64,000 nt of DNA from Gemmatimonadaceae bacterium (GTDB lineage: Bacteria > Gemmatimonadota > Gemmatimonadetes > Gemmatimonadales > Gemmatimonadaceae), in NCBI GenBank assembly GCA_036496605.1, contig DASXKV010000050.1:62001-126000 (forward strand), read 5' to 3'. A model generated the notes under the pieces. The model was not told the DNA's origin. It ran no database searches and was given only the letters and a program-made list of their open reading frames with translations. Positions within the stretch are counted from its first letter, which is position 1. Each line of letters starts with the position of its first letter. Both the position numbers and the translations under genes were made by a program. Shown here piece after piece: positions 15,607 through 19,957 of the stretch.

Positions 15607-16479
15607 ATGACGGCTCTACGCCGGCGCCTCACCGAGAACCTCCAGCTCCGAGGCTATGCTGAGCGGACGGTCGAATCATACGTCGCGGTCGTCGCTCGCC
15701 TGGCGCAGCACTATCGGCGTGCACCTGACCAACTGACGGAAGCCGAGCTGCGCGCGTATCTGCTCTATCTCACGTGCGAGCGTAAACTCTGTCGCGCGAG
15801 TTTCACGCAGACCTTGTGCGGGCTGCGCTTCTTCTACGAACAGACACTCGGTCGCCACTGGACCATCCTCGACGTGGCGCGGCCGAAACGGGACCGAAAA
15901 CTTCCGGTCGTCCTCAGCCGGGACGAAGTCTGGCGCGTGCTCGGAGCGGTGCGCACGCCGATGTATCGCACCTGCCTCACGACCATCTACTCGTGTGGCC
16001 TCCGCTTGTGCGAGGCGCTCGATCTTCACGTCGAGCAGATCGACAGTGACCGCTTGCTCTTCCACATCCGGCGCGGCAAGGGGGGCGTCGACCGGATGGT
16101 GCCGATACCGCACGCCTTGCTCACGGTGCTCCGCGCCCACTGGCGCACGCATCGCAATCCGGTGTGGGTCTTTCCCGCGCCGCGTCGGCGGCCCCCACGC
16201 GCCGTCTCGGATCCGACGATTGGGCCAATCGATGCCACCGTTCTGCAGCGCGCGTTCACCCGGGCGGTGACCGATAGCGGCGTCCAGAAACGGGCGCACG
16301 TGCACACGCTTCGGCACAGCTACGCGACACATCTGCTCGAAGCCGGCGTGCCACTCGCGCTCATTCAGGAATACCTGGGGCATAGCAGTCCCAGTACAAC
16401 GTCGATCTACACGCACGTGACCCGCGAGCTGCGCGACGCGGCCATCGATCCGATAAATGAGTTGATGCCGGCCCCGTAG
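15607..16479 (+). CDS. Tyrosine site-specific recombinase of the IS91-like element
   Basis: 290 residues with an N-terminal SAM-like core-binding domain (ENLQLRGYAERTVESYV) and catalytic residues R133 (CGLRLCEAL), K158 (RRGKGG), H233-R236 (HTLRH), H259 (LGHSS) and Y268 (SIYTHV). It lacks the integron-specific insert, so it is not a second IntI. ATG at 15607 follows GAGAGGATCAT, a weak Shine-Dalgarno. It stands immediately upstream of the IS91-type transposase, a pairing seen in some IS91-family elements; its role there (for example resolving intermediates) is not established from sequence. Confidence 0.88.
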   Translation: MTALRRRLTENLQLRGYAERTVESYVAVVARLAQHYRRAPDQLTEAELRAYLLYLTCERKLCRASFTQTLCGLRFFYEQTLGRHWTILDVARPKRDRKLPVVLSRDEVWRVLGAVRTPMYRTCLTTIYSCGLRLCEALDLHVEQIDSDRLLFHIRRGKGGVDRMVPIPHALLTVLRAHWRTHRNPVWVFPAPRRRPPRAVSDPTIGPIDATVLQRAFTRAVTDSGVQKRAHVHTLRHSYATHLLEAGVPLALIQEYLGHSSPSTTSIYTHVTRELRDAAIDPINELMPAP

Positions 16480-16498
16480 CTCGCGTCGGCCGCGTCTC

Positions 16499-17647
16499 GT
16501 GCTCGAGCTGGCGGACATCATCCGCGCAGCAGGACCGGCGTACGTCGCTACGCACGCCGGCACGCTTCTGCCGTCCCAGCGCCGGGCACTCCATGACATC
16601 ATCCAGTGTCGCACTGCAGCCCTCGGCGGCTCGCTGTATCGCTGTGACGATTGCGGCGCGCTCGACTACCGCTATCACTCCTGTCGCAGTCGCCATTGTC
16701 CAAAGTGCCAGACCGATCGTGCCCAGCGGTGGCTCGATCGAGTCCAGGAGCGCTTGCTTCCGTGCGATTACTATTTGCTCACTTTTACCTTGCCCGCGCA
16801 GCTGCGGACAGTGGCGCATCGTCATCAGCGCTCGGTTTATGGGGCGTTGCTCCGCGAGGCAGCTGCCACCGTACAACGCGTCGCCGCCGATCGCGCCTGG
16901 ATCGGCGGGACGCCTGGCATCCTCGCCGTGCTCCATACGTGGTCACGCACGCTCGACTACCATCCGCACGTGCATCTCCTGGTGAGCGCAGGTGGTCTGA
17001 CCGCGGATGGAGCGGCGTGGATTCGGCCAGCACACCCTCGGTTCCTTTTGCCAGGCTATGTGCTCTCCCGGATCTTTCGCGCGAAGATGCGCGATGCGCT
17101 GACACGCGCTGGTGTTGTCTCGAATATCGATGCCCGCGTATGGCACCGCCGCTGGACCGTCCATGTTGAGCAAGCTGGTACTGGTGCACACGCGACGCTA
17201 TACCTCTCGCGCTATGTCTATCGCGTCGCGCTCACGAATCAACGACTCGAACGCTTCGCCGACGGGCGCGTCACGTTTCAGTACACGGACGCGCGGACGC
17301 ACACAACACGCTCGCTCACGCTGCCAGTCGACGTCTTCCTGACTCGATTTCTGCACCACGTCTTACCACGAGGCTTCACCAAGGTCCGCTGGTACGGGCT
17401 CCTGAGCCCCAGTCATCGCGCGGATCTCGAACGCGCTCGCCATCTCATCGCGCATCATGCTTCATCCAGTGCGCGCGGAGCGTCGCCCTCCACCGCCGCC
17501 GCCGCGACCTCGACACGCGACGATCAGTCACCCCCTTCGTTCGTGCCGCTCGCGAACCGATGCCCCGTGTGCTCTCGCGGTCACCGTGTGCTCGTGCAAC
17601 GCTACCTCCCTTCGCGCGCTCCGCCGCTATGCTCGCGCGTCGCGTAG
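16499..17647 (+). CDS. IS91/IS801-family HUH transposase
   Basis: 382 residues, full length. An N-terminal zinc ribbon (CDDCGALDYRYHSCRSRHC plus PKC) is followed by the HUH metal site in HPHVHLL and the paired catalytic tyrosines in YLSRY, spaced four residues as in IS91. A C-terminal CPVC motif completes the usual ending. It nicks and rejoins single strands in rolling-circle transposition. GTG start at 16499, 19 bp after the recombinase stop; the long GC-rich spacer codes (SSARGASPSTAAAATS) near the end are a linker. No frameshift seen, so it may be active. Confidence 0.93.
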   Translation: MLELADIIRAAGPAYVATHAGTLLPSQRRALHDIIQCRTAALGGSLYRCDDCGALDYRYHSCRSRHCPKCQTDRAQRWLDRVQERLLPCDYYLLTFTLPAQLRTVAHRHQRSVYGALLREAAATVQRVAADRAWIGGTPGILAVLHTWSRTLDYHPHVHLLVSAGGLTADGAAWIRPAHPRFLLPGYVLSRIFRAKMRDALTRAGVVSNIDARVWHRRWTVHVEQAGTGAHATLYLSRYVYRVALTNQRLERFADGRVTFQYTDARTHTTRSLTLPVDVFLTRFLHHVLPRGFTKVRWYGLLSPSHRADLERARHLIAHHASSSARGASPSTAAAATSTRDDQSPPSFVPLANRCPVCSRGHRVLVQRYLPSRAPPLCSRVA

Positions 17648-17966
17648 CCACCTGCGCAGCGGCCGGCGCTCCGCTCACCACGCGGACTGCCCAGCCGGGC
17701 TGTGCCCACGTCCCTGTCGTGCACCGCGATCGCGCTCACGCCGACCACGTGCGACGCTCAGACTTGCTTCGACTCTGGCCAGCCGGCATCTTCGCACCAG
17801 CGGAACGGTCGTCCACGCGCTCTTCGATTTCGATCAAATTCCAAGTGTAGGTCCGTCGCACCATTCACGGCGGATCGAGTTCAACAGGAGATTCTTATCC
17901 GCGGCTTCGCGCGGCAAGAATCTCTACTGCGTTAGGTAGCGCCCAATTCTCCGGGGCGATACAGAT
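17648..17966. other. Right-end noncoding DNA of the IS91-like element, then attC1
   Basis: No credible gene. 17648-17878 is GC-rich noncoding DNA downstream of the transposase where oriIS is expected; 17879-17937 is the first attC site; 17938-17966 is the 5' leader of the first cassette gene. Confidence 0.55.
17879..17937 (+). other. attC1 recombination site (complete, 59 bp)
   Basis: R'' box GTTCAAC (fits RYYYAAC) at 17879-17885 and R' box GTTAGGT (fits GTTRRRY) at 17931-17937. Between them AGATTCTT at 17889 pairs with AAGAATCT at 17916, and the top of the fold is CCGCG/CGCGG around a short loop. Size and palindromy are those of a short integron attC. The R'' box coincides with the GTTC at the IS91-like right end. 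Confidence 0.8.
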
Positions 17967-18311
17967 ATGCCTATCGGCGATGCGTCCGAGGCACGCCCCG
18001 CGAACACCACACGCGCTGCACCGCCGAGCGTTGCGGCCGTGGCGTCTCTGCTATCCTGGGTCGTCGGTGGCGCAGTCGGCTGGACGTTCTCGCGGCGGCA
18101 TCCCGCCGCGCCAGCGTTGGAGTGGGCCGGTGTTGCGGTGGCGGGCGCTTCGATCGTGCTCAGCGTCTACGCCGTCTGGTGGCGCCGCAGCACTGGCCGG
18201 CCCCTGGTCACCCGCGCCGTGTGGCCTGCCCTGGCGACAACGATCGCGCTTAACGGACCGTTCGCCGTTCTGGTCGCGTGGATTCTAAGACTCGTGGACC
18301 GCGCTACCTAA
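17967..18311 (+). CDS. Cassette gene: small membrane protein of unknown function
   Basis: 114 residues with three or four hydrophobic segments (VAAVASLLSWVVGGAVGW, GVAVAGASIVLSVYAVWW, LATTIALNGPFAVLVAWIL). ATG is 30 bp after the R' box of attC1, and the TAA stop is part of the R'' box of the next attC (ACCTAAC), the classic one-gene cassette arrangement. No family recognised. Promoterless cassettes depend on read-through from an upstream promoter, here possibly disturbed by the IS91-like insertion. Confidence 0.75.
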   Translation: MPIGDASEARPANTTRAAPPSVAAVASLLSWVVGGAVGWTFSRRHPAAPALEWAGVAVAGASIVLSVYAVWWRRSTGRPLVTRAVWPALATTIALNGPFAVLVAWILRLVDRAT

Positions 18312-18441
18312 CGTCCGTTGAACCCGCCGAGCGCTGGGAGCATCCGGTGGGGAGGTGGCATCCGGTATCTTCCCTTTAGCATCGCGAACCGGTTGGGTTA
18401 TGCGCTCGCAGGTTAACTCTGGCGTTGATATGACTGGGCTG

Positions 18442-18671
18442 CTGTCAAGGAGCGAATGAGGTCGCGTGGTCTGGAGCAGCATCGACGGTGAATCCTGCTG
18501 ATATACGCCGGTCAGCACGTCGCCATGCCGGAGCCACAAGAATTGGATTCGTCGGGAGCTGGCCCCTTCTAGACTCGGGGATCTCGCGTCTTACCCGCGA
18601 GCCGCATAACGCCATCGGGAGTGCTCGCCCTTCGAGCCCCAGGCGCACGCGACCACATCTTCATCAATTCG
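18442..18671 (-). ncRNA. Candidate bridge/seek RNA of the IS1111-type element
   Basis: 230 bp with no gene, downstream of the transposase where IS1111-subgroup elements encode their guide RNA. Read on the minus strand it can form several stems: GCTCG/CGAGC (18623-18637), CTCGCG/CGCGAG (18582-18600) and GCTGA/TCAGC (18498-18517). It contains TGGCGTTATGC (complement of 18604-18614), matching 10 of 11 bases of the restored target TGGCGTTAGGC. GCCTAACG at the transposase stop is complementary to the other strand of the same site. Position and matches are seen; the RNA itself is inference. Confidence 0.5.
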
Positions 18672-19805
18672 TTAGGCGACGAGCGCGACCTCCGGCGCCG
18701 GCAGGTCCCGCATCACGGCCCACAAGAAGCCGACCAACTCTCGCGCCACCGCCACGACCGCGATCTGCGGCACCTTCCGATACGCGAGATGTTGATACCG
18801 TTGGTGTAATCGCTGCTGCGCCTTCCACGCGTGGGCGATGACCGTGGCCGGTTGGCCCTGTTGCCGCCGACGAATCTCGACGCTCAGGTTGGGGCGATAG
18901 TGATAGCACCACGCCGCCTGCACGAGCACGTGCCGGCAGTGGCTGTTCCCCGCTTTCGTGATCGAGCCTTTCCGCTCGCGCGGGCCACTCGAGTCCTCAC
19001 GACAGACGAGACCGAGGTAGGCCGCGAGCTGGCCCGGCCGTTCGAAGCGCCGCCAGTCGCCGATCTCCGTCGCCAACACCATCGCCGCACGAAGCCCGAT
19101 CCCGCGGAAGCACGGTAACCGCGCGACCGCGGGAGCGAGCGTCGGGAGGAGCGCGAGCTGCTCGATCTGGCGATCGAGCTCGTCGCGCCGCTGCAACTTG
19201 TACGCGAGCAGCGCATGGTACTCCCGGAACACGAGCCGATCGGCGGGCGCGAGCGGCGATTGCTCACTCGTGAGGTGCTCGAGCCAGCGGAGATGCGGCG
19301 TACACCAGTTCGTCCCGTCGCGAAAGACGAAGCCACGGCGGGCGAGGAACTTGAGAATGTAGTGCCGCGACTTCAGGATCTCGCGCTGGAAGGTCTCGCG
19401 ACACCGCACGACGTCGCGCACGCGTTCCTCGGCCTCGGTGGGGATGCGAATCGCCGTGAGCTCGCCGGCGCGATAGAGCCGAGCCAGCTCGCAGGCGTCT
19501 CGCTTGTCGTGCTTCCGCTGGACGCCGGGGCGTTGCGGGATAAGCGACGGCGCGATCACCTCACACGCGTCGCCCCAGTCGCGCAGCGCGCGGTGGAGGA
19601 CGTAGCCAGCGCCACTCGCCTCATAGCAACTGCGCAACTCACCCTGCCGGGCGAGTCGATCAAGATACCGTTTGAGCTTCGGCAACTCGTTAGGAAGCCG
19701 GTCGACGTGCCTCGGCGTCTTCGCGCCGACCGGCAGCACCGCGATCGTGATGGAGTCCTTGTGGACATCCATGCCGAGATAGATGATAAGGGCAGCAGAT
19801 GACAT
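18672..19805 (-). CDS. IS110-family DEDD transposase
   Basis: 377 residues. The N-terminal RuvC-like DEDD domain has GMDVHKDSI (first Asp), CYEASGAGY (Glu) and HDKRDACEL (Asp pair); the C-terminal Transposase_20 domain has CFRGIGLRAAMVLATEIGD, with LAAYLGLVCREDSSG and TKAGNSHCRHVLVQAAW. It recombines via a circular intermediate under guidance of an element-encoded RNA. The TAA stop is embedded in GCCTAACG (18669-18676). The reading frame is intact, so the element may be functional. Confidence 0.95.
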   Translation of the reverse strand: MSSAALIIYLGMDVHKDSITIAVLPVGAKTPRHVDRLPNELPKLKRYLDRLARQGELRSCYEASGAGYVLHRALRDWGDACEVIAPSLIPQRPGVQRKHDKRDACELARLYRAGELTAIRIPTEAEERVRDVVRCRETFQREILKSRHYILKFLARRGFVFRDGTNWCTPHLRWLEHLTSEQSPLAPADRLVFREYHALLAYKLQRRDELDRQIEQLALLPTLAPAVARLPCFRGIGLRAAMVLATEIGDWRRFERPGQLAAYLGLVCREDSSGPRERKGSITKAGNSHCRHVLVQAAWCYHYRPNLSVEIRRRQQGQPATVIAHAWKAQQRLHQRYQHLAYRKVPQIAVVAVARELVGFLWAVMRDLPAPEVALVA

Positions 19806-19957
19806 GGGCTGGTCTCCGTGATGAGTGCGACAGTTCGATCGTCGCAGGTGGCTCTGGCAACTCCGGTTCGCACCGAGGAGCTAATCCACGTGAGAACCGG
19901 GGGCCAGCCCAGTCATATTTTCTAGGCTGCACACGCATCCAGATCATCGGTCAGAAC

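What the first reader, a model, noticed from the sequence alone, without database searches (positions are those of the whole stretch)
18442..18671. Candidate guide (bridge/seek) RNA with target matches
The noncoding 3' tail of the IS has three small stems and two stretches related to the restored attC target. One (complement of 18604-18614) matches 10/11 with TGGCGTTAGGC; the other, GCCTAACG at the transposase stop, is complementary to the opposite strand of the same site. Paired guides against two strands are what IS110-family bridge RNAs require. Caution: GCCTAACG is an abundant word in this genome.
Basis: partly seen in the sequence, partly recalled or inferred. Interest (0 to 1): 0.78.

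Follow-up and report, generated by a model that had tools for sequence, protein, structure and literature searches.

The report
Guide RNA of attC-targeting IS1111-type element
A small mobile DNA element in a Gemmatimonadota bacterium carries, next to its transposase gene, an RNA whose short guide stretches spell out the DNA site where it inserts (here an integron cassette's recombination site); in about 40 relatives the guides change together with the site, which places it in a recently discovered class of RNA-guided mobile elements.

Summary
The element at 18427-19923 (1,497 bp, transposase on the minus strand) is an IS110-superfamily element of IS1111 type. It sits in an attC site (restored GCAGCCT|AACGCCAGAG) of a large Gemmatimonadota cassette array. 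Its 3' noncoding tail encodes a conserved, covarying RNA (about 18479-18654, minus strand), found beside related transposases in dozens of Gemmatimonadota genomes. Guide 1 (TGGCGTT, 18608-18614) pairs with the right flank. The real second guide is AGTCT (18571-18575), matching the left flank. Over 36 distinct guide/flank pairs, guide 1 matches its own right flank at 5.0 of 7 positions against 2.6 shuffled (0 of 20,000); guide 2 also passes. Targets include attC sites and IS630-type tips, with guides changed to match. A second loop carries donor guides that track the element's own ends, including its terminal 3 bp. This is a new member of a known kind (seekRNA/bridge RNA), with an unusually clear natural-retargeting series.

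The parts
18427..19923 (-). whole IS1111-type element (1,497 bp) inserted in an attC; left end at 19923, right end at 18427
   Evidence: inverted repeats plus 7/3-bp extensions; same layout in relatives
18672..19805 (-). transposase gene, 377 aa, IS110 family (DEDD_Tnp_IS110 + Transposase_20; GLVCREDSSG motif at residue 265)
   Evidence: Pfam, NCBIfam NF033542 213 bits, cutoff 140, motif
18479..18654 (-). conserved guide (seek/bridge) RNA region; true RNA ends unknown
   Evidence: alignment A1/A2, covariance model R1, covariation
18556..18626 (-). target-reading domain of the RNA (outer stem, loop with guides 1 and 2, inner hairpin)
   Evidence: consensus structure
18608..18614 (-). guide 1: TGGCGTT, complement of the right flank AACGCCA (top strand); A at 18607 pairs with the T before the junction
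18571..18575 (-). guide 2: AGTCT, same sequence as the left flank AGCCT except one U-G wobble position, so it pairs with the bottom strand
18484..18553 (-). donor-reading domain of the RNA
   Evidence: consensus structure
18539..18544 (-). guide 3: AATTCT, complement of the left-end AGAA(TT)
   Evidence: weaker covariation with left ends
18500..18505 (-). guide 4: TATATC, same sequence as the right end (CATATC)
   Evidence: covaries with the terminal 3 bp in relatives
19905..19916 (-). left subterminal inverted repeat ATGACTGGGCTG; 7-bp extension AGAAAAT at 19917-19923
18430..18441 (-). right subterminal inverted repeat CAGCCCAGTCAT; 3-bp extension ATC at 18427-18429
18443..18448 (-). TTGACA next to the right repeat, candidate -35 of a circle-junction promoter
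   Evidence: TTGAC(A) in 46 of 47 relatives; -10 weak
18301..18426 (+). left part of the interrupted attC (R'' ACCTAAC ... GGCGTT); continues AGGC at 19924-19927
   Evidence: inverted repeat I23, fold of joined flanks

Best explanation
The element is an RNA-guided IS1111-type transposon. The tail downstream of the transposase gene is transcribed, most likely from a promoter formed when the ends abut in an excised circle. The RNA folds into two loops. The first reads the target: guide 1 pairs with the top strand right of the insertion point (AACGCCA) and guide 2 with the bottom strand left of it (AGCCT). The second reads the element's own joined ends: guide 3 the left end (AGAA), guide 4 the right end (TATC). 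The DEDD transposase with this RNA recombines circle and target without duplicating the target, here inside the R' box of an attC, two bases past the cassette crossover point (G^TT|AGGC), which should cripple that attC. Shown by sequence comparison: the RNA, its structure, and covariation of guides 1, 2 and 4 with flanks and ends (guide 3 more weakly). Inferred: transcription, binding to the transposase, circle formation, recombination chemistry, loss of attC function.
For: Conserved RNA with covarying structure beside the transposase in many Gemmatimonadota genomes. Guide 1 against own right flank: 36 distinct pairs, 4.97/7 against 2.61 shuffled, 0/20,000; 19 pairs not beginning AACG, 5.0 against 2.5, 0/20,000; guide 2 against left flank 3.64/6 against 2.58, 0/20,000. 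Four copies of one element in one genome sit in four different sequences that all share AACGTGTGC on the right and CAT on the left, as its guides read. Right-end 3 bp agree with the RNA donor loop in 48 of 49 elements, including six with ends other than ATC, and two further cases predicted from the RNA were then found. IS1111 hallmarks: subterminal repeats, 7/3-bp extensions, downstream noncoding region, guide order.
Against: L084 and L008 have identical RNAs but right flanks matching at only 2 and 4 of 7; L002 and L079 match at 3 of 7, and L164 fails in the register used. The shuffle tests do not correct for shared ancestry. Guide 2 in the window needs one wobble. No RNA or protein data. The junction promoter is weak.
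Confidence: 0.93

Rival explanations
1. One reading: the two target guides are the complement of 18604-18614 and GCCTAACG at the transposase stop.
For: Both words are present and complementary to the two strands of the site.
Against: GCCTAACG occurs 45 times in the window, overlaps the Ala-stop codons, has no counterpart matching the target in 17 other elements, lies outside the conserved RNA, and would give the reverse of the IS1111 guide order.
Confidence: 0.02
2. The transposase alone, not an RNA, recognises the folded attC hairpin or its sequence; the tail is only regulatory.
For: Elements of this kind were first described by their preference for attC, and the restored site folds well.
Against: Close relatives with the same RNA scaffold insert in unrelated non-attC sites and their guide bases change to match.
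Confidence: 0.02
3. A target-only seekRNA: the first loop finds the target, and the second loop does not read the element's ends (its match to the right end is a by-product of common descent or serves binding to the protein).
For: For ISEc11 an 82-nt seekRNA sufficed for transposition. Most right ends here are the same ATC, so the informative cases are few, and guide 3 matches loosely.
Against: Several changes of the terminal 3 bp (AAC, AGC, ACG, GAG) are mirrored in the RNA, and two cases were predicted from the RNA before looking. Durrant et al. predicted donor loops in IS1111 RNAs.
Confidence: 0.15

Closest known systems
ISKpn4, ISPst6, ISPa25 (IS1111-attC group; seekRNA, Siddiquee et al. 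2024, PMC11187229)
   Same: IS1111-type element, downstream noncoding region with a target-matching RNA, insertion at one end of attC sites, top-strand guide before bottom-strand guide
   Different: Gemmatimonadota lineage with a 377-aa transposase; the sequences of those elements could not be fetched, so their RNAs were not compared base by base
IS621 and bridge RNAs of the IS110 family (Durrant et al. 2024, PMC11208160)
   Same: RNA with a target loop and a donor loop, two guides each
   Different: There the RNA is upstream of the transposase gene and repeats are short; here it is downstream, with 12-bp subterminal repeats and the opposite guide order. Transposase similarity by phmmer is limited to the C-terminal domain
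ISEc11/ISXne4 natural retargeting pair (PMC11187229)
   Same: Related elements whose seekRNA guides differ in step with their targets
   Different: Here the same is seen over 36 distinct guide/flank pairs, attC and non-attC
IS4321/IS5075 (IS1111 family, target Tn21 terminal repeats)
   Same: Subterminal repeats and a downstream noncoding region; some relatives here also insert at the tips of other elements
   Different: Transposase only 26% identical over 78%; here attC and element-tip targets occur within one close family

Membership tests
IS110 superfamily (DEDD transposase) | DEDD N-terminal and Transposase_20 C-terminal domains | tested here: met
   Pfam PF01548 1e-11, PF02371 3e-18; NCBIfam NF033542 above cutoff
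IS1111 family | subterminal inverted repeats of 11-13 bp with 7-bp left and 3-bp right extensions | tested here: met
   12 bp, AGAAAAT and ATC
IS1111 family | long noncoding region downstream of the transposase gene | tested here: met
   245 bp between stop and right end in the window; similar in relatives
IS1111 family | no target duplication | tested here: met
   joined flanks restore a standard attC box GTTAGGC with no extra base; no empty copy was available
IS1111 family | transposase inside the IS1111 clade (330-350 aa) | tested here: inconclusive
   377 aa; only 26% identity over 78% to IS4321; no tree with reference members was built
seekRNA of IS1111 elements | top-strand guide 5' of bottom-strand guide, both matching the flanks | tested here: met
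seekRNA / bridge RNA | guides differ in step with targets among relatives | tested here: met
   permutation tests 0/20,000; four copies in one genome
bridge RNA | second loop matching the element's own ends | tested here: met
   right end 48 of 49, left end weaker; by comparison only
seekRNA / bridge RNA | RNA made and bound to the transposase, required for transposition | not testable with these tools
   needs RNA sequencing and transposition assays
IS1111-attC group | insertion at a fixed point and orientation in attC | tested here: met
   most group-1 relatives insert at the same junction YT|AACG; direct comparison with ISKpn4 not made
Rfam 15 families | match at gathering score | tested here: not met
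   no match in the window

The most novel reading that the evidence does not exclude
In this IS1111-type lineage one RNA reads all four half-sites, including the element's own terminal 3 bp, and the lineage has repeatedly switched between integron attC sites and other targets (IS630-type tips and others) by rewriting about 7 plus 4 guide bases. This would reconcile the seekRNA and bridge RNA models for IS1111 elements.
Probability: 0.65. Interest if true: 0.5.

Novelty: new member of a known kind. Interest (0 to 1): 0.42.

Why it matters
It adds a well-resolved guide RNA lineage without an Rfam model, in Gemmatimonadota, with a natural series of guide/target pairs that shows by comparison alone which bases read the target and which read the element's ends. 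It shows RNA-guided elements inserting in environmental cassette arrays, not only in clinical integrons. The donor-loop covariation bears on whether IS1111 RNAs are target-only seekRNAs or full bridge RNAs.

Tried and rejected
GCCTAACG at the transposase stop as a guide: rejected. Rfam: nothing. Viral contigs: no relatives. Single-sequence fold: not more stable than shuffles. Promoter and terminator scan in the inserted form: nothing. Search for an empty copy of this attC and for other copies of the element in its genome: none. ISKpn4, ISPst6 and ISPa25: not shown by name in the tblastn lists of plasmids, and Tetu and Holmes 2008 is not in the library, so no direct comparison with the known attC group. 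Automatic left-end or right-end calls with poor arm matches were dropped by hand before the statistics. Paper search for integrons plus insertion sequences in Gemmatimonadetes: none.

Full report
WHAT IS THERE. The window lies in a genome (G000, contig C50) whose close transposase relatives are Gemmatimonadota. The transposase gene 18672-19805 (minus, 377 aa, intact) matches Pfam DEDD_Tnp_IS110 and Transposase_20 and NCBIfam NF033542, 'IS110 family RNA-guided transposase'. A 12-bp inverted repeat, ATGACTGGGCTG, at 19905-19916 and 18430-18441, with a 7-bp left extension (AGAAAAT) and a 3-bp right extension (ATC), defines the element as 18427-19923. Joining the flanks in the transposase's orientation gives GCAGCCT|AACGCCAGAG, i.e. 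CTCTGGCGTT|AGGC on the plus strand, the R' box of an attC. The cassette start GTTAGGTAGCGC at 17930-17942 and its inverted partner at 18301-18313 and the fold of the joined flanks agree. The element has one copy in its genome.

CHECK OF THE OBSERVATION. TGGCGTTATGC is at 18604-18614 (minus) as stated. GCCTAACG is at 18670-18677, but it occurs 45 times in the window, because attC sites carry it, and here it coincides with the Ala-stop codons of the transposase.

RELATIVES. Searches for the transposase found close relatives (about 59-81% identity) in Gemmatimonadota and more distant ones (about 36-43%) in other phyla and on plasmids. The tails of the close relatives, and of three at about 40%, align, giving a conserved region of about 170 nt. 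A covariance model (R1) found it in 40 of 395 genomes of the phylum and 24 of 179 of the family. Pairs in the consensus structure are kept in 93.3% of cells, with 66 cells changed on both sides against 22 in shuffles (0/500); sliding the partner by one column drops pairing to 34-41%. The structure has two domains: a stem-enclosed loop with an inner variable hairpin at 18556-18626, and a second one at 18484-18553.

GUIDES AND TARGETS. The ends of each relative were located from its inverted repeats, and guides were read from fixed alignment columns. Guide 1 (window TGGCGTT, 18608-18614) is the complement of the right flank. Over 36 distinct pairs it matches its own flank at 4.97 of 7 positions beyond the invariant A, against 2.61 with flanks swapped (sd 0.23; 0 of 20,000). 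For the 19 pairs whose flank does not begin AACG the figures are 5.0 against 2.5, so the signal is not just a shared attC word. Uninterrupted matches, counted from the junction: L098 10 bases, L090, L070 and L173 9, L085 and L091 8, L088, L092, L081, L099 and the window 7. Guide 2 (window AGTCT, 18571-18575) matches the left flank: 3.64 of 6 against 2.58 (0 of 20,000), strongest next to the junction. One genome (G164) holds four copies of one element in four different sequences. All four have right flank AACGTGTGCTTCTGCTG and left flank ending CAT, which is what that RNA's guides read (CGCAT and AACGTGTGC). The order of guides, top-strand complement first, is that reported for IS1111 elements.

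OTHER TARGETS. In L059 and L185 the right flank begins an element whose first gene starts like IS630-family transposases (MARGRPRQPLV..., MRGRPKAELI...; my own reading of the sequence, not tested against a family library). In L088 it begins a short element of about 160 bp with an inverted copy of its tip at the other end. This resembles IS4321 and IS5075, which target the tips of Tn21-type transposons (title of reference 1).

DONOR LOOP. The second RNA loop carries, on its 3' side, the sequence of the element's own right end: RNA TATATC against end CATATC. In the elements whose last three bases are not ATC, the RNA differs in the same way: AAC (L098, L173, L174), AGC (L090), ACG (L088), GAG (L184). 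In all, 48 of 49 agree; the exception is L165. From the RNA alone I predicted GAG for L015 and AGC for L178; the downstream DNA shows GATCATGAG|AGC and TTCATAGC|AGT. The 5' side matches the left-end extension more loosely (3.1 of 5 against 2.5). This supports a bridge-type RNA with donor guides, as predicted for IS1111 by Durrant et al., although a short target-only seekRNA sufficed for ISEc11.

EXPRESSION. TTGACA, with at most one change, stands next to the right repeat in all 47 elements checked, and TTGAC in 46 of them, where a -35 would be needed for a promoter formed by abutted ends, as reported for other members. The -10 part is weak, so this remains an inference.

MISFITS. L084 and L008 have identical RNAs but different right flanks matching at 2 and 4 of 7; L002 and L079 match at 3 of 7; L164 fails in the register used. 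These may be off-target insertions, later guide changes or alignment shifts; I did not resolve them. The shuffle tests ignore shared ancestry; the non-AACG subset and the four-copy genome reduce but do not remove that concern.

VERDICT. The finding is real and half of its detail is right. It is a new member of a known kind (IS1111-type element with a seekRNA/bridge RNA and an attC target; known from ISKpn4, ISPst6 and ISPa25). Whether the 377-aa transposase belongs inside the IS1111 clade was not settled. The value lies in the natural retargeting series and the donor-loop covariation.

Noticed in passing
window 3534-60401: GCCTAACG, a typical attC core word, occurs 45 times on both strands in 64 kb (1.4 expected): a very large cassette array, with cassettes apparently in both orientations.
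   Followed up: partly
window 15607-17647: A tyrosine recombinase gene (best NCBIfam hit integron integrase, 206 bits, below its cutoff of 265) directly precedes an IS91-family transposase gene inside the array.
   Followed up: partly
L185 (Cupriavidus necator pBB1), L184 (Sphingobium fuliginis pSF4), L012, L014, L015: The same RNA layout (guide loop, then donor loop) is visible in distant relatives at about 37-43% transposase identity, so the RNA family is wider than Gemmatimonadota.
   Followed up: partly
L059, L185, L088 right flanks: Relatives inserted exactly at the tip of other elements, two of them IS630-like by my reading, one a short element with inverted tips.
   Followed up: partly
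G164 contig C1 (L153-L156): Four copies of one relative in one genome, all at sites with CAT|AACGTGTGCTTCTGCTG, probably four attC sites.
   Followed up: yes
L084 and L008: Identical guide RNAs but two different right flanks, both poorly matched; left flanks match well.
   Followed up: no
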